From positions 2,908,001 through 2,972,000 of the forward strand of contig NZ_LT703001.1 of NCBI RefSeq assembly GCF_900149705.1: DNA of 64,000 nt, read 5' to 3'. Origin of the DNA: Sphingorhabdus sp. Alg231-15. Lineage in GTDB: Bacteria > Pseudomonadota > Alphaproteobacteria > Sphingomonadales > Sphingomonadaceae. Positions 57,526 to 62,324 of this stretch are shown one piece after another (the first letter of the stretch is position 1; the number at the start of each line of letters is the position of its first letter). The notes under the pieces are model-generated. The model saw only the letters and a list, made by a program, of their open reading frames with translations, was not told where the DNA came from and did no database searches. Both the position numbers and the translations under genes were made by a program.

Positions 57526-58233
57526 TCAGTGTTGCTGGTTAGTTTCTGATTCAATTGAAGTATGTGCGCTGGCAGTATGAGCGGGCTTATGGCCTAAATC
57601 TGTTTCGAAGGCATTGATGGTATTTAGGTCACTTTTATTTTCCCAGATCGAAACGGCTGCATGTGTAATGGCGTATTGGAATCCCCCAAGGATCCGAGTG
57701 AAGGCAGCTGTTCCGGCAAGCTTTTTGCCGCTTGATCTAACATTGTATTTCCCGTTGCAATGGGCTCCAGGGACAAAGCCAATATCGGCATCTAATCCCA
57801 GTTCACGAAGAACTGGAATCAGATAGTCAATCACCGGACGAAACAGCTCTTCTGTGTTGCAGCGTTCTATTTGCTGGGCGAAGCTGATATTTAGGATATG
57901 AGATCCGTGGACTACCGCGCTGCCACCTGAAATGCGAAGAGCCACAGGAATTGGGCAACGCCTTTTTGCTCGTTCAAAATGCGGGTTCACTTGCCAACGT
58001 TTTGGTACCACTAAACAGTTATGGTTTTGCCAGATTCTAAGAGTTGTTTCTGCGCAACCACGTTCGGACATTCGATCAAGCAGAATGCTGTCTGCGTCAA
58101 TCTGGCGCTGAGTAGAGTTGATGTTCTTGTCCCAATAAGCGCCGGAGTGGCGATCTAGAAAAGATGTAATGATTCTGTTCCGAAAGGAAATTCGACTACA
58201 ATCAGGCGCGACTACCTTTGCAGACTCACCCAT
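57526..58233 (-). CDS. Lipoate-protein ligase (LplA-like)
   Basis: About 235 residues from the ATG at 58233, eight bases overlapping the lipoyl-domain gene; the longer open frame to 58446 is only the shadow of that gene. Lipoate/biotin ligase fold: RISGGSAVVHGSHILN is the substrate-adenylate loop (usual form R..GGG.V.H), and CNGKYNVRSSGKKLAGTAAF holds the catalytic Lys in GKKLAGTA. This points to an ATP-dependent ligase or transferase of lipoate, not the Cys-dependent LipM. The gene next to it encodes the only candidate substrate in the operon, a free lipoyl domain. Dedicated lipoylation is the natural reading. Confidence 0.85.
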   Translation of the reverse strand: MGESAKVVAPDCSRISFRNRIITSFLDRHSGAYWDKNINSTQRQIDADSILLDRMSERGCAETTLRIWQNHNCLVVPKRWQVNPHFERAKRRCPIPVALRISGGSAVVHGSHILNISFAQQIERCNTEELFRPVIDYLIPVLRELGLDADIGFVPGAHCNGKYNVRSSGKKLAGTAAFTRILGGFQYAITHAAVSIWENKSDLNTINAFETDLGHKPAHTASAHTSIESETNQQH

Positions 58234-58462
58234 CAATGATGCGTCCAATGCATTGACCTCGCGCGACTTCTTCTTCAGTTTGCGCCAGAATTGACAACAC
58301 ACCATCAGCGGGTGCGGCAATTTCGAAGCTGGTCTTTTCATACATAATTTCAACGATGATGCTTCCTGCCCCCACGCGGTCACCGTCGTCATAAAGCCAG
58401 CTGGAAATGACCGCTGGTCCATCTTCTGTATATAGATCTTCTGCAACGACGATATCAGTCAT
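58226..58462 (-). CDS. Free-standing lipoyl-domain carrier protein
   Basis: A 78-residue protein that is a single lipoyl/biotinyl domain and nothing else: VAEDLYTEDGPAVISSWLYDDGDRVGAGSIIVEIMYEKTSFEIAAPADGVL in pieces (GPAVISSWLYDDGDRVGAG, IMYEKTSFEIAAPADGVL). Lys43 in the hairpin turn (YEKT, where E2 proteins have DKA) is the expected lipoylation site. There is no subunit-binding domain, no acyltransferase domain and no linker, unlike normal E2 chains of 400 residues or more. Start overlaps the E1-beta stop by eight bases, and its stop overlaps the ligase start. It should act as a mobile swinging-arm carrier. Confidence 0.88.
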   Translation of the reverse strand: MTDIVVAEDLYTEDGPAVISSWLYDDGDRVGAGSIIVEIMYEKTSFEIAAPADGVLSILAQTEEEVARGQCIGRIIDG

Positions 58463-59483
58463 ATGCGAGTTCCATCATGTCTGTGACGGCGGCGACGATC
58501 TTATCATCATTGGGCAACACAAAATTCTCCATAGCTGGCGAAAAAGGAATTGGAATGTCAGGATGAGAAATGCGTACCGGGGTGTTTTTGAGCGGTACGC
58601 CCGCTTCGCACACGCTAGCGATCACCTCGCCAGATACACCATAGCTGTGATAATCGTCATCCACTGATAGCAGGCGGCCGGTTTTTTGAACCGATTGGAT
58701 AATGCTGTTGCGATCCAGTGGCGCAATAGTCCGGAGATCGATCACCTCGGCGGAGATATCCTGTTTTTCCAGTGCTGTTGCAGCAGCCAAACAATGATGC
58801 ACCGTCAGACCTAGACCGACTAGTGTCACATCATCACCCTGTCTTGCAAGGGCAGCCTGGCCAATGGGAATTTCATAGTCGCTTTCAGGGACGTGGGTAA
58901 TTGCTCCTTTTTCGGTACCCAGCCATCCCATGCCCTGCAGCGCCTTGTGGAACATGAAGATCACAGGGTTTTCGTCACGAATGGCTGCAAGCATAAGCCC
59001 TTTTGCGTCATGCGCATTCGATGGGATGACAACTTTCATGCCCGGTAAATGGCCAAAAGTGGCATAAAGGCACTGCGAATGTTGTCCGGCATCACCATAA
59101 CCGCCGCCAACTGAGGTCATCAACACCATGGGGCAGGTAACATTTCCGCCGGAAAAATAGCTTTGTTTCGCTGCAAGATTGTAGATCGAATCCATGCAAA
59201 CGCCGAAAAAGTCGACAAACATCAGTTCCACAATCGGTCGCATGCCGGCCGCTGCCATACCAACTGCCGTACCGATAAAGGCAGTTTCCGATATCGGTGT
59301 GTCGCGTACCCGTTCCGGCCCGAAGCTGTCCAGCAAACCAATAGTGTTGCCAAAAACTCCGCCAAGCTTTGCGATATCTTCTCCCATGACGATAACATCA
59401 TCATTTCGTTCCATTTCCTGAGACACAGCTTCGGCCATGGCCTTTGCGATGGAAAGTTTGCGATCTGCAACTTTTGTGTTCAT
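58455..59483 (-). CDS. 2-oxoacid dehydrogenase E1 component, beta subunit
   Basis: A 342-residue beta subunit of a thiamine-diphosphate dehydrogenase (pyruvate, acetoin or branched-chain type). Motifs: VIVMGEDIAKLGGVFGNT (cofactor-activating Glu), RVRDTPISETAFIGTAVGMAA, GYGDAGQHSQCLYATFGHLPGMKVV in pieces, and the C-terminal transketolase domain with DLRTIAPLDRNSI. AcoB-like in overall look. ATGA overlap with E1 alpha upstream and eight-base overlap with the lipoyl gene downstream show coupled expression. Confidence 0.92.
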   Translation of the reverse strand: MNTKVADRKLSIAKAMAEAVSQEMERNDDVIVMGEDIAKLGGVFGNTIGLLDSFGPERVRDTPISETAFIGTAVGMAAAGMRPIVELMFVDFFGVCMDSIYNLAAKQSYFSGGNVTCPMVLMTSVGGGYGDAGQHSQCLYATFGHLPGMKVVIPSNAHDAKGLMLAAIRDENPVIFMFHKALQGMGWLGTEKGAITHVPESDYEIPIGQAALARQGDDVTLVGLGLTVHHCLAAATALEKQDISAEVIDLRTIAPLDRNSIIQSVQKTGRLLSVDDDYHSYGVSGEVIASVCEAGVPLKNTPVRISHPDIPIPFSPAMENFVLPNDDKIVAAVTDMMELAYD

Positions 59484-60487
59484 GCGTTGGTCCTCTCGAC
59501 AAATACGCGCTCAAAGGCTTCTTCGGCATCGGGAAGGTTGGAATTCCGAGCCTGTGCAAATGCCTCTTCAACGGCATTGCGGCATTTTTCTTCGCATTCC
59601 TCTATCTGGTCTGGCGCCAATCCCGCCGCTATAAGAGTTTCACGATAAGCTGGAATTGGATCCAACGCGCGTAGACGGTCCACCTCTCCCTCTGGCCGAT
59701 ACCCTTCAGCATCGCCCATAAAATGGCCTTCCAGCCGAGTGGTTTCTATCTCGATCAGAGATGGGCCGCCGCCAGACCGTGCCCGCATGATCGCTTCACC
59801 AGCGGCATCATAAATTGTATCCGGATCGTTTTTTTCGATATGGATGCCGGGCATTCCATAGCCAGCAGCACGGACCGCGTTGCGCTCAACGGCTGTGCAA
59901 TCCGACTTGGAAACTGATATACCATAGCTGTTATCTTCAATGACAAACACCACCGGAGCCCTCCAGACGGCAGCCAGATTCAACGCCTCATGAAAGGCAC
60001 CTTGATTGGCCGCACCGTCGCCGATGAAAGAAACCGCAACATGGTCCTGCCCTCTTAATTTTGCTGCCATTGCTGCGCCAACTGCAGGCCCCATGCCTTG
60101 AGCAATAATACCCGAGCAAGCGAAGTTAACATCCGCATCGAACAAATGCATATGGCCACCGCGTCCACCGGATAATCCGCTATCTTTGCCAAAAATTTCC
60201 GCCGCCATGGCGTTCATATCGACGCCTTTGGCAATCGCTATATGATGCGGACGGTGGGTGGCGGTGACGGTATCTTCTCCGCGCAAATGAATGCAGACGC
60301 CTGCTGCGCACGGTTCTTGCCCGTCTGACAAATGCATTTCGCCCGGGATTGGACCTTTGGCCATGTTAAACAGCGGCTGCTTGCCTTCCAGATATGCCGT
60401 CTTCGTGGCCGCTTCGAAACAGCGGCTTGTAAACATCATCTCATACATTCTTATACGATGCTGCTGATTATCATGTGCCTCCGTCAT
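59480..60487 (-). CDS. 2-oxoacid dehydrogenase E1 component, alpha subunit
   Basis: About 335 residues from the ATG at 60487, which overlaps the SDR stop as ATGA; an upstream start at 60499 is in the SDR gene. The thiamine diphosphate motif is GDGAANQGAFHEALNLAA ending in EDNSYG. GGRGGHMHLFD and SGIIAQGMGPAVGAA are AcoA/PDH-like. The active-site His region reads TATHRPHHIAIAKG instead of the HRGHGH common in pyruvate and acetoin enzymes, suggesting a distinct substrate class. Catalyses decarboxylation and transfer of the acyl or aldehyde unit to a lipoyl group. Confidence 0.92.
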   Translation of the reverse strand: MTEAHDNQQHRIRMYEMMFTSRCFEAATKTAYLEGKQPLFNMAKGPIPGEMHLSDGQEPCAAGVCIHLRGEDTVTATHRPHHIAIAKGVDMNAMAAEIFGKDSGLSGGRGGHMHLFDADVNFACSGIIAQGMGPAVGAAMAAKLRGQDHVAVSFIGDGAANQGAFHEALNLAAVWRAPVVFVIEDNSYGISVSKSDCTAVERNAVRAAGYGMPGIHIEKNDPDTIYDAAGEAIMRARSGGGPSLIEIETTRLEGHFMGDAEGYRPEGEVDRLRALDPIPAYRETLIAAGLAPDQIEECEEKCRNAVEEAFAQARNSNLPDAEEAFERVFVERTNA

Positions 60488-61254
60488 TGCGCAGTCCACC
60501 CACCGTCAATCACCAGCTCACTTCCGGTTACAAAGTTTGACTCATCCGACGCGAGATAGACCGCACCCATTGCAACATCGGCCGTCGCACCAATGCGCTT
60601 GACTGGCGTCATATTGGCAAGGTCGCTCCACGGGTCATCAACGCCCAGCAGGCCGTTTTCGACCCACATATTAACTGCCTCTTCCAGCATCGTAGTGCGG
60701 ATGCAGCCTGGGTGGATAGTGTTCGCCCTGATAGGTTTTTCATGCGCCGCCCATTCAATGGCCAGGCTTTTACTCAAATGGCGAACCGCGGCTTTGGATG
60801 TGTTATACGCGATTTGGTTGGGTAGGCCGACCAATCCTGCGATAGAGGACATACTGATCACTGATGCCGGACGAGGAGATGAAGACCCTGCGATCAACAA
60901 TTCCTCCAGCAATTTACAGCCCAGAAAGATACTATCAACGTTGATAGACATCACTCGGCGCCATTCGTCCAGTGAAGCCTCCTGAAGAGGTTTCAGCAAT
61001 TCGACACCGGCATTGTTGACGAGAATATCCAACCGACCATCACGCTTTGCAATCGCCTGCTTGGCTTGGCTCCAATCATCACTGCTGGTTACGTCTAACC
61101 TCAGTGTTCGGCCATCATCGCTTGTCTGCGGCTCGACATCACTCAGCCAGACTTTTGCACCTTCATTGATAAAAGCAGCGACGATTGCGGATCCAATCCC
61201 ACCGGCAGAGCCTGTAATAAGTGCAATTTTTCCCTCTAGTCTTCCCGACGCCAT
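60484..61254 (-). CDS. SDR-family dehydrogenase, first gene of the E1/lipoyl operon
   Basis: A 256-residue classical SDR with all catalytic features: TGSAGGIGSAI (cofactor), NNAG, Ser in SMSSIAG, YNTSK (Tyr and Lys), and a C-terminal SELVIDGGW. It probably oxidises a secondary alcohol to the keto acid or hydroxyketone taken up by the E1 enzyme. Members close to this type include acetoin/diacetyl and 3-hydroxyacyl dehydrogenases; the real substrate is unknown. Its stop overlaps the E1-alpha start. The promoter must lie in 61255-61352, after the AraC gene. Confidence 0.9.
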   Translation of the reverse strand: MASGRLEGKIALITGSAGGIGSAIVAAFINEGAKVWLSDVEPQTSDDGRTLRLDVTSSDDWSQAKQAIAKRDGRLDILVNNAGVELLKPLQEASLDEWRRVMSINVDSIFLGCKLLEELLIAGSSSPRPASVISMSSIAGLVGLPNQIAYNTSKAAVRHLSKSLAIEWAAHEKPIRANTIHPGCIRTTMLEEAVNMWVENGLLGVDDPWSDLANMTPVKRIGATADVAMGAVYLASDESNFVTGSELVIDGGWTAQ

Positions 61255-61352: not shown

Positions 61353-62324
61353 TCAACTGAGCCGCAAGTTATGCGCCTGGTTGCGATAAGCACGCGGGCT
61401 CATACTAAATTCCTGTTTGAATACCCGGCTAAAATGGGAGGAATCCTTGAAGCCATTTTTCATTGCAATTTGCGTTATCGACAACCCGTCCAGATACGGT
61501 GTTTCCATATCGGAACGGCTGCGAAATAGCCGGCTGCGCTTAATCCAGTCAGACACTGTCATATCAAATTGATTGAACAGGCGGTGCAAATAACGCGGGC
61601 TGAAACAGAAGGCAGCCGCAATATTTTGCGGCCCAAGATCAGGCTCGCCCAAGTTTTCGATAATATGTTCCTGAACACGGGTCAGCAGCGCCCGGCGAAA
61701 CGCAGTTCCCCCAATTTTCTCTTCGCTTGGTCGAAAGGCCGCAGCCATTAAATCCACCGTTGCGCGCAGAATAGCTGGGCGATCTTGAGTATCAATCGTA
61801 TCGATCGTGTCATGTAATTGCCGAAGGTGGGATAGCAATAAGGCCCCCGTACCCTCATTACCGTCCACATTCAAACCACATAAGTCCTCAATGCCGGGTA
61901 ACGATTGCAGCGCAACTTCATGCGGTATCAAAAGAGAAAATTGATGGAATTGACTGTGAGTACCAAAAAATGCGGGGCGGGTGCTATCCCACAAGGCGAT
62001 TGATCCCGCGGCTGCTTTGGATTCATTCGGACCTTGTCGCAATACCCCGTCACCAGCTTCCAGATAAAGTAGACAAAAATAGTGATGATCCGATTGGCGG
62101 ATATCGCTAATCGTCCTATTTCCGGTCAATGGATCTGCGGCAAGTTCCGTAAAGACAAAGTCATTGACCGTGTGACGTCTCACTTCGGCAGTATAGTGGT
62201 CATCGTTGGAATTCTTCAGATCCCAATGCGAATGAGTGCGGTCCAAAACTTGTTGGAACGCCCGAAACTGCGACATTCTCGGGACCATTTTTGTGTCCCA
62301 AATTTCTGTTTTTTGTACGTCCAA
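61353..62324 (-). CDS. AraC-family regulator, FeaR-like
   Basis: A 323-residue regulator. An N-terminal AraC-binding-2-type domain (about 20-190) as in FeaR is followed by a C-terminal double helix-turn-helix at about 220-318 (LGPQNIAAAFCFSPRYLHRLFNQF, then SITQIAMKNGFKDSSHFSRVFKQEFSMSPRAYR in pieces). It is transcribed toward the SDR-E1 operon and away from the TonB receptor, so it sits between its probable targets. The signal is likely the substrate or a product of the operon. Confidence 0.9.
   Translation of the reverse strand: MDVQKTEIWDTKMVPRMSQFRAFQQVLDRTHSHWDLKNSNDDHYTAEVRRHTVNDFVFTELAADPLTGNRTISDIRQSDHHYFCLLYLEAGDGVLRQGPNESKAAAGSIALWDSTRPAFFGTHSQFHQFSLLIPHEVALQSLPGIEDLCGLNVDGNEGTGALLLSHLRQLHDTIDTIDTQDRPAILRATVDLMAAAFRPSEEKIGGTAFRRALLTRVQEHIIENLGEPDLGPQNIAAAFCFSPRYLHRLFNQFDMTVSDWIKRSRLFRSRSDMETPYLDGLSITQIAMKNGFKDSSHFSRVFKQEFSMSPRAYRNQAHNLRLS

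What the first reader, a model, noticed from the sequence alone, without database searches (positions are those of the whole stretch)
57526..61254. E1/lipoyl-carrier operon with its own lipoate ligase but no E2 or E3
Five genes (SDR, E1 alpha, E1 beta, a 78-residue lipoyl-domain protein, LplA-like ligase) run on the minus strand and each start overlaps the previous stop. Normal 2-oxoacid dehydrogenase operons encode a full E2 acyltransferase; here the lipoyl part is a free carrier with Lys43, and the neighbouring ligase is the obvious modifier. Known: E1 needs a lipoyl domain as acceptor, and free lipoyl carriers with their own assembly enzymes exist (glycine cleavage H protein, sulfur-oxidation LbpA). 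Inferred: this is a dedicated decarboxylation module where the acyl-lipoyl carrier passes its group to an enzyme encoded elsewhere.
Basis: partly seen in the sequence, partly recalled or inferred. Interest (0 to 1): 0.8.

Follow-up and report, generated by a model that had tools for sequence, protein, structure and literature searches.

The report
E2-less E1 and lipoyl-carrier operon
A sphingomonad-type bacterium carries a compact operon that makes a thiamine enzyme, a tiny swinging-arm carrier protein and the enzyme that probably arms it, but not the usual partner that unloads the arm; related bacteria repeat the arrangement, so the unloading partner would have to come from elsewhere.

Summary
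Five overlapping minus-strand genes (SDR, E1 alpha, E1 beta, 78-residue lipoyl carrier with Lys43, LplA-fold enzyme) form an operon without E2 or E3. The genome has three E2 genes, all fused and full length. Related modules mostly have a split E2: a free lipoyl carrier plus a separate catalytic E2 gene of about 225 aa. The window lacks that gene, but this is no isolated loss: 17 of the 80 named loci kept have E1 beta, carrier and transferase without it, in several clades of the E1 beta tree. The 'ligase' is closest to LipL, an amidotransferase that moves octanoyl/lipoyl groups between proteins; an invariant Cys159 aligns with a cysteine of LipL-type BH3822. The E1 resembles acetoin-cleaving AcoAB more than the genome's own 2-oxoacid E1s by BLAST and motif, though trees do not resolve this. 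Most likely the module cleaves an acetoin-like hydroxyketone (or decarboxylates a 2-oxo acid) onto the lipoyl carrier, and an acyltransferase in trans, probably a housekeeping E2, makes the acyl-CoA. The trans step, the substrate and lipoylation itself are inferred. A new variant of a known kind; I found no description of it in the open papers searched.

The parts
60484..61254 (-). SDR oxidoreductase (256 aa), first gene of the operon
   Evidence: Pfam adh_short_C2 174.8 bits; none of the 25 best NCBIfam models shown is over its cut-off, BudC 2,3-butanediol dehydrogenase 158.6 of 270; a similar SDR (292-323 bits with the window SDR as query) precedes E1 in L079, L081, L082, L083, L085, L100, L134; another lies in L027
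59480..60499 (-). E1 alpha (ThDP-binding); start GTG 60499 or ATG 60487
   Evidence: Pfam E1_dh 231.8 bits; His259 aligned with the GH(S)M(S)D histidine of human E1 alpha; THR motif as in the AcoA of L049 where the own 2-oxoacid E1s have Tyr
58455..59483 (-). E1 beta
   Evidence: Transket_pyr 147.2 bits, Transketolase_C 112 bits; Glu66 and His135 aligned with E59 and H128 of the Geobacillus PDH beta chain 1w85_B
58226..58462 (-). free lipoyl carrier, 78 aa, Lys43
   Evidence: Biotin_lipoyl 37.6 bits; best NCBIfam neighbours are lipoyl parts of AcoC and SucB, below cut-off; Lys43 invariant 95 of 95
57526..58233 (-).
   Evidence: LplA-B_cat 52.1 bits (scanned as the longer ORF); family profile best against BH3822 2p5i, E 8.3e-31; W68, R100, G103, G104, C159, G161, K171, G174 invariant in 91 of 91; model pLDDT 93.4, best folds 2p0l and 2p5i
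61353..62324 (-). AraC-family regulator (FeaR-like) upstream of the operon
   Evidence: HTH_18, AraC_binding_2; FeaR model 157.4 bits, cut-off 199; a profile made from four such regulators, the window's among them, hits 14 of 94 loci

Best explanation
A self-contained acyl-generating module of the acetoin-dehydrogenase type that lacks its own acyltransferase. (1) The SDR oxidises or reduces a vicinal diol, hydroxyketone or related substrate (inferred). (2) E1 alpha-beta with ThDP cleaves an acetoin-like alpha-hydroxyketone, or decarboxylates a 2-oxo acid, and passes the acyl group to lipoate on Lys43 of the 78-residue carrier (E1 catalytic residues shown to be kept; reaction inferred). (3) The carrier is armed by the last gene, a LipL-like Cys159 amidotransferase that takes octanoyl/lipoyl from a lipoylated protein such as GcvH (homology and conserved residues shown; donor and activity inferred). 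(4) The acyl-dihydrolipoyl carrier visits an acyltransferase encoded elsewhere, most likely the catalytic core of one of the three housekeeping E2s, which makes acyl-CoA; a housekeeping E3 reoxidises the carrier (inferred).
For: Operon and domains. E1: the PDH residues H128-beta, E59-beta and H271-alpha (roles from PMC2663715, passages) correspond to H135 and E66 (aligned to 1w85_B) and H259 (aligned to human E1 alpha; its identity with H271 is inferred), kept in 96 of 96, 95 of 96 (one gap) and 93 of 93 rows. A Tyr of 2-oxoacid E1 alpha (human AYRAHG; I take it for Y102-alpha of PMC2663715) is His in 85 of 88 rows with a letter, including the AcoA of L049, whose AcoC passes its NCBIfam cut-off (462 against 307 bits); it is Tyr in three, the own presumed PDH, presumed BCKDH and second module. 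Window E1 alpha/beta score 226/247 bits against L049 AcoA/AcoB, 168/213 against own PDH, 163/212 against the second module, 124/209 against own BCKDH. Transferase: 49 of 50 rows hit the octanoyl-GcvH:protein transferase model, 44 of 50 LipL, 17 of 50 lipoate ligase TIGR00545; the window row is below every cut-off. PDB profile search: 2p5i 8.3e-31, 2p0l 7.4e-25, next chain 4.5e-12. No LplA accessory domain PF10437 in the genome (0 matches at E<=1); GcvH is present. Trans partners: three fused E2, an E3 beside sucAB and an E3-like gene beside another E2 (the second by eye). No split-type E2 in 23 E2-less genomes.
Against: Nothing shows that a housekeeping E2 accepts this carrier. In the E1 beta tree the own PDH E1 beta joins the family more closely than the L049 AcoB, on very long branches that the program flags as unsure, and the E1 alpha tree does not resolve it, so the acetoin reading rests on BLAST scores and one motif against few references. 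The small sulfur-oxidiser LplA enzymes are true ATP ligases without the small domain (PMC6067878, passages), so its absence does not exclude a ligase. By Foldseek the gap between LipL-type chains and LplA is small (9.8e-15 and 8.4e-13 against 2.6e-12). The window transferase is divergent (19-35% identical to the 49 relatives aligned). Three of the other E2-less genomes do hold a lipoyl-less E2 of another clade.
Confidence: 0.55

Rival explanations
1. The acyl group does not go to an E2 at all: the acyl-lipoyl carrier feeds a different acceptor (a thiolase-type or alpha/beta-hydrolase-type acyltransferase, a hydrolase, or another biosynthetic partner), so the module is an E2-independent use of an acyl-lipoyl carrier.
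For: The E2-less state recurs (17 of 80 named loci; 6 changes on the E1 beta tree). In the acetoin AcoC of L049 the part after the lipoyl domain matches alpha/beta-hydrolase models. L098, an E2-less locus, has a thiolase and a ChsH2-type OB/zinc-ribbon protein upstream. In relatives that keep a catalytic E2, the DHRxxDG motif reads DHRxxNG in 24 of 71 and DPRxxDG in 1.
Against: No candidate acceptor was seen in all of the 20 E2-less loci compared, within the stretches held. In 63 of 80 named loci a catalytic E2 is in the same locus as the carrier, which points to E2 chemistry as the family's norm. The window's surroundings hold no obvious acceptor (by eye).
Confidence: 0.22
2. The last gene is an ATP-dependent lipoate ligase of the small, single-domain sulfur-oxidiser type that salvages free lipoate onto its own carrier.
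For: Such single-domain ligases specific for their own carriers exist (PMC6067878, passages); the cores of the two LplA motifs, R..GG and GKK..G, are present in the window protein (motifs from PMC3904984, passages); LplA folds rank just below the LipL-type folds.
Against: Profile and family scores favour LipL; the invariant Cys159 sits where the LplA chain 1vqz shows a gap.
Confidence: 0.2
3. A decayed remnant: the operon lost its E2 and no longer works.
For: The window lacks a gene that 63 of 80 named loci have and its E1 beta sits on a longish end branch (0.33 against a median of 0.039).
Against: All five frames are intact and overlapping; E1, carrier and transferase residues conserved in the family are kept; the same E2-less order is kept in six other named loci.
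Confidence: 0.06
4. A canonical 2-oxoacid dehydrogenase that simply uses a split, lipoyl-less E2 encoded elsewhere in the genome.
For: Relatives carry a split E2; three other E2-less genomes have a lipoyl-less E2 of another clade (L191, L193, L194).
Against: In the window's genome all three E2 are fused frames of 422-440 aa with a lipoyl match in the same frame; no other E2 was found.
Confidence: 0.04

Closest known systems
Acetoin dehydrogenase enzyme system (AcoA, AcoB, AcoC, AcoL)
   Same: E1 alpha-beta nearest to AcoA/AcoB of L049 among four comparison loci by BLAST, with the THR motif; lipoyl acceptor; lipoate-assembly genes inside aco clusters are known (acoS and lipB in Pelobacter carbinolicus, PMC3543383, passages; a putative lipoyl synthase in Acinetobacter, PMC6595428, passages)
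   Different: No AcoC acyltransferase and no AcoL in the operon; the lipoyl domain is a free 78-aa protein; the modifying enzyme is a LipL-like transferase; an AraC-type regulator beside the window operon, whereas a sigma-54 regulator profile hits 44 of 94 loci of the family
Split-E2 modules (E1a-E1b-lipoyl protein-separate E2 catalytic protein-transferase) of Alpha- and Gammaproteobacteria, annotated gene by gene; I found no paper on them
   Same: Same E1s, same free carrier, same transferase family, same gene order
   Different: The separate E2 catalytic gene is absent in the window and in 17 of 80 named loci
LipL amidotransferase (lipoyl/octanoyl-GcvH to E2)
   Same: Closest family by profile; aligned Cys and conserved GG and Lys motifs
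   Different: Far below the curated cut-offs (28.5 bits against 400); encoded in an E1 operon of a proteobacterium; LipL had been identified only in Firmicutes according to PMC3904984 (passages)
LbpA lipoate-binding proteins with their own LplA (sulfur oxidation)
   Same: A free lipoyl carrier with its own dedicated maturation enzyme in one operon (PMC6067878, passages)
   Different: LbpA is GcvH-like and serves an Hdr-like system with an ATP ligase; here the carrier is an E2-type lipoyl domain beside an E1
OdhA/AceF hybrid complex of Corynebacterium (PMC7568260, start of abstract in a listing only; the use of a lipoyl domain in trans is recalled)
   Same: Suggests that lipoyl domain and acyltransferase can be on different proteins
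   Different: There the lipoyl domain belongs to a full E2 (recalled)

Membership tests
2-oxoacid / acetoin dehydrogenase E1 (alpha-beta ThDP type) | E1_dh and transketolase-type domains with the catalytic residues | tested here: met
   Pfam over cut-off; E66, H135, H259 kept
Acetoin dehydrogenase system | E1 closest to AcoA/AcoB | tested here: inconclusive
   Best of four comparison loci by BLAST and one motif, but the trees do not support it
Acetoin dehydrogenase system | Its own lipoylated acyltransferase (AcoC or E2) | tested here: not met
   None in the operon; only three fused E2 in the genome
Acetoin dehydrogenase system | Cleaves acetoin | not testable with these tools
   Needs enzymology
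Complete 2-oxoacid dehydrogenase operon | E2 and E3 encoded with E1 | tested here: not met
Lipoyl domain (not biotin carrier) | Lipoyl-type domain with a conserved Lys, nearest to E2 lipoyl domains | tested here: met
   PF00364 over cut-off (this family covers biotin carriers too); nearest NCBIfam models AcoC and SucB, a biotin enzyme at 7e-4; Lys43 in 95 of 95
Lipoyl domain (not biotin carrier) | Lys43 actually carries lipoate | not testable with these tools
   Needs mass spectrometry
LipL amidotransferase | LplA/LipB fold with the active-site Cys | tested here: met
   Fold; Cys159 in 91 of 91, aligned with a Cys of BH3822; that BH3822 is LipL-type and that this Cys is catalytic are recalled
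LipL amidotransferase | Score over the curated LipL-type cut-off | tested here: not met
   28.5 of 400 bits for NF053589; NF047857 not hit by the window row at 1e-3: a relative, not filed as LipL
LplA lipoate ligase | Small accessory domain, fused or separate | tested here: not met
   235 aa, no PF10437 in the genome at E<=1; single-domain ligases exist, so not decisive

The most novel reading that the evidence does not exclude
A recurring E2-independent acyl-lipoyl system: E1 loads a free, dedicated lipoyl carrier that delivers acyl groups to a non-E2 acceptor, with an in-operon LipL-type transferase arming it, so that the lipoyl carrier works as a diffusible acyl carrier much as ACP or the glycine-cleavage H protein does.
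Probability: 0.25. Interest if true: 0.85.

Novelty: new variant of a known kind. Interest (0 to 1): 0.62.

Why it matters
The textbook E1 works with an E2 that owns both the swinging lipoyl arm and the acyltransferase. Here the arm is a free protein and the acyltransferase is absent from the operon, yet the set is kept in several lineages. If the acyl group is unloaded in trans, different E1s may share one E2 core; if it is unloaded by something else, this is a new use for lipoate. A LipL-like transferase in a proteobacterial operon also bears on the point raised in PMC10332631 (passages) that unknown amidotransferases may replace LipL.

Tried and rejected
Rejected: E2 just outside the window (L030 has no hit; genome-wide). 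Rejected: an assembly or annotation quirk of one genome (23 E2-less genomes searched, the window's included). Rejected as stated: 'LplA-like ligase'.

Led nowhere: a shared non-E2 acceptor near the E2-less loci (20 loci, mostly 6 kb to each side, clusters of at least 3 loci printed: judged from coordinates, clusters shared widely are the operon genes, other frames over them, or the AraC regulator; the rest are lineage-specific). The first genome-contig scan with the transferase alone (20 pattern matches, no relative). A regex slip, redone. A substrate from context (AraC/FeaR-like regulator, TonB receptor, permease, amidohydrolase: suggestive only; a Cupin_7-type neighbour in L027, L102, L195, L196, 4 of 94 loci).

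Results against my reading: E1 trees with outgroups do not group the family with AcoAB. Of the 23 E2-less genomes, G968, G974 and G982 hold a lipoyl-less E2 of another clade (L191, L193, L194) that could serve there; G976 has a fragment at a contig end (L192). I inspected these four; other frames under 400 aa (for example G977, 353 aa; G968, 372 aa) were not checked for a lipoyl domain. The look for E3 was a motif scan of seven fetched stretches, not a genome search.

Literature: nine searches were answered; none listed a paper that I could recognise as describing a split-E2 or E2-less E1-carrier-transferase operon. I opened passages of six papers only, and the library lacks most subscription papers, so this is weak evidence of absence.
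Full report
WHAT IS THERE. The window lies at G000:C1:2908001-2972000 of a 3.62 Mb genome, 99.99 per cent complete. On the minus strand five genes overlap: SDR, E1 alpha, E1 beta, a 78-residue lipoyl-type protein and a 235-residue LplA-fold protein. An AraC-type regulator lies upstream on the same strand and a permease converges from downstream; a TonB-receptor-like gene (by eye) points away. G188, of the same family, has a contig of the same length as the Sphingobium wenxiniae contig of L087 (242,380 bases), so I take the organism for a sphingomonad (inference).

IS E2 REALLY MISSING? The E2 catalytic family PF00198 has three matches in the genome, in open frames of 422, 438 and 440 aa. Each has a lipoyl match in its frame. 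A profile built from five stand-alone E2 catalytic subunits of related modules (A1) finds the same three, at most 161.5 bits, and nothing else at E<=10. In the stretches fetched, an E3 gene lies beside sucAB (L075) and, by eye, an E3-like gene beside another E2 (L076); no genome-wide E3 search was run.

RELATIVES. The transferase is sparse: 5 of 246 genomes of the order match at E<=1e-8, 12 of 398 of the phylum at E<=1e-12, the window's own counted. Of 385 genomes of the class, 31 match the carrier profile at E<=1e-12; only five (the window's, G926, G766, G856, G546) score over 85 bits, the others listed under 60, mostly in long frames. Plasmid records annotated by others show the common form: E1 alpha, E1 beta, 'lipoyl domain-containing protein' (about 234 bases), '2-oxo acid dehydrogenase subunit E2' (about 680 bases), 'hypothetical protein' (the transferase) in Paracoccus, Phaeobacter and Roseibium; without an annotated E1 alpha in Aminobacter, where IS elements lie nearby; and with the transferase some 7 kb away in Sphingomonas paeninsulae. 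A scan of genome contigs with twelve carriers matched 281 stretches; 152 encode a relative and the best 80 were kept. Annotated with profiles made here, 63 of 80 have a catalytic E2 in the locus and 17 of 80 do not; all 17 have E1 beta and the transferase, and 16 of the 17 show E1 alpha, the contig of L080 being cut. By record title the 17 are Sphingopyxis (L080, L083, L100, L134), Sphingosinicella (L081, L082, L085), Rhodobacterales-type genera (L084, L089, L096, L097, L098, L105, L116, L119, L120; L084 and L097 lie in one genome) and a Rhodospirillaceae (L102, transferase about 2.4 kb away). Six of them (L081, L082, L083, L085, L100, L134) also have the SDR directly upstream, the window's order. 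Five of 80 show no transferase in the stretch held (L087, L110, L114, L141, L156); L114 and L156 have under 0.9 kb downstream, and in L087 it probably lies further off on the contig (G188, L026).

GENOME-WIDE TEST IN RELATIVES. The split-E2 profile gives 318 and 230 bits for true split subunits in G188 and G076, and at most 148 bits in the E2-less G562 and G594 and 159 bits in 20 further E2-less genomes. With the window's that makes 23 genomes without a split-type E2. The lipoyl-less E2s of another clade in three of them, and the frames not inspected, are told in Tried and rejected.

EVOLUTION. On a tree of 96 E1 beta sequences the presence of the catalytic E2 changes 6 times (three outgroups and L025 not counted), with E2-less and E2-bearing modules mixed in the window's own clade. 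The E2-less state is thus repeated and stable, not one accident. In the 71 catalytic E2 frames of relatives the motif is DHRxxDG in 43, DHRxxNG in 24, DHQxxDG, DHAxxDG and DPRxxDG once each, and one is truncated. That HxxxDG is the catalytic motif is recalled; if so, the acyltransferase itself is under relaxed or changed demand in this family.

E1. PDH residues H128-beta, E59-beta, H271-alpha and Y102-alpha are described in PMC2663715 (passages). The first two align with window H135 and E66; H259 aligns with the corresponding histidine of human E1 alpha (that it equals H271 is inferred). They are kept in 96 of 96, 95 of 96 (one gap) and 93 of 93 rows. The tyrosine that I take for Y102-alpha is His in 85 of 88 rows with a letter, as in the AcoA of L049, but Tyr in the genome's presumed PDH (L077), presumed BCKDH (L031) and second E1 module (L025). 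L049 is a fair acetoin reference because its AcoC passes the curated cut-off; the rest of that AcoC matches alpha/beta-hydrolase models (same call), so acetoin systems already differ in their acyltransferase. BLAST scores point the same way. The trees do not. A sigma-54 AcoR-like regulator profile hits 44 of 94 loci, the AraC profile 14 of 94, the window among the latter.

THE 'LIGASE'. Its family, 50 rows of 91 found, matches BH3822 (2p5i) at 8.3e-31 and 2p0l at 7.4e-25, the other chains from 4.5e-12. 49 of 50 rows hit the octanoyl-GcvH:protein transferase model, 44 of 50 LipL and 17 of 50 lipoate ligase; the window row is far below each cut-off. W68, R100, G103, G104, C159, G161, K171 and G174 are invariant in 91 of 91. 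C159 aligns with a cysteine of BH3822 and with a gap in the LplA 1vqz. The predicted structure (44 rows, pLDDT 93.4) matches 2p0l and 2p5i first, LplA folds close behind and LipB further down. I read it as a LipL-like amidotransferase serving its neighbour carrier; the genome has GcvH as a possible donor. PMC3904984 (passages) says LipL had been identified only in Firmicutes; PMC10332631 (passages) says Proteobacteria contain LipB and never LipM, and leaves room for unknown amidotransferases.

HOW IT WORKS. Shown: gene set, order, conserved catalytic residues, absence of an own E2, recurrence. Inferred: lipoylation of Lys43, the donor, the substrate (acetoin-like hydroxyketone more likely than a 2-oxo acid), and unloading by a housekeeping E2 core in trans. 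Unloading by another acceptor is the main rival and the more novel reading.

VERDICT. Observation confirmed; interpretation partly supported; new variant of a known kind; interest 0.62.

Noticed in passing
G000:C1:2833560-2835780 (L025 11560-13780): A second E1 alpha-E1 beta-free lipoyl protein (77 aa) set without E2 nearby in the same genome, without a transferase, beside a Rieske-type oxygenase, acyl-CoA dehydrogenase-like and enoyl-CoA hydratase-like genes (identities by eye). Its E1 alpha has Tyr where the family has His and is a distant relative.
   Followed up: partly
24 of 71 catalytic E2 frames (listed), L086: Catalytic E2 subunits of relatives carry DHRxxNG instead of DHRxxDG in 24 of 71; L086 has DPRxxDG.
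   Followed up: partly
L098 484-3794: E2-less module preceded by a thiolase, a ChsH2-type OB/zinc-ribbon protein and an FmdA/AmdA-type amidase; a possible alternative acyl acceptor.
   Followed up: no
L193, L194 (G974, G982): E2 proteins in frames of 310 and 338 aa with no match to the carrier profile in the frame, in E2-less genomes.
   Followed up: no
L027 3400-9513; L102, L195, L196: A Cupin_7-type protein lies near some modules (4 of 94 loci); L027 also has an acetyl-CoA-synthetase-like AMP-binding gene between SDR and E1.
   Followed up: no
L029, L047, L048, L051-L054, L056-L059: Transferase relatives that stand alone, with no E1 or carrier in the stretch read; what they modify is unknown.
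   Followed up: no
L113 (Neptuniibacter marinus): Two lipoyl carriers with a partial E1 copy between them, apparently a tandem duplication.
   Followed up: no
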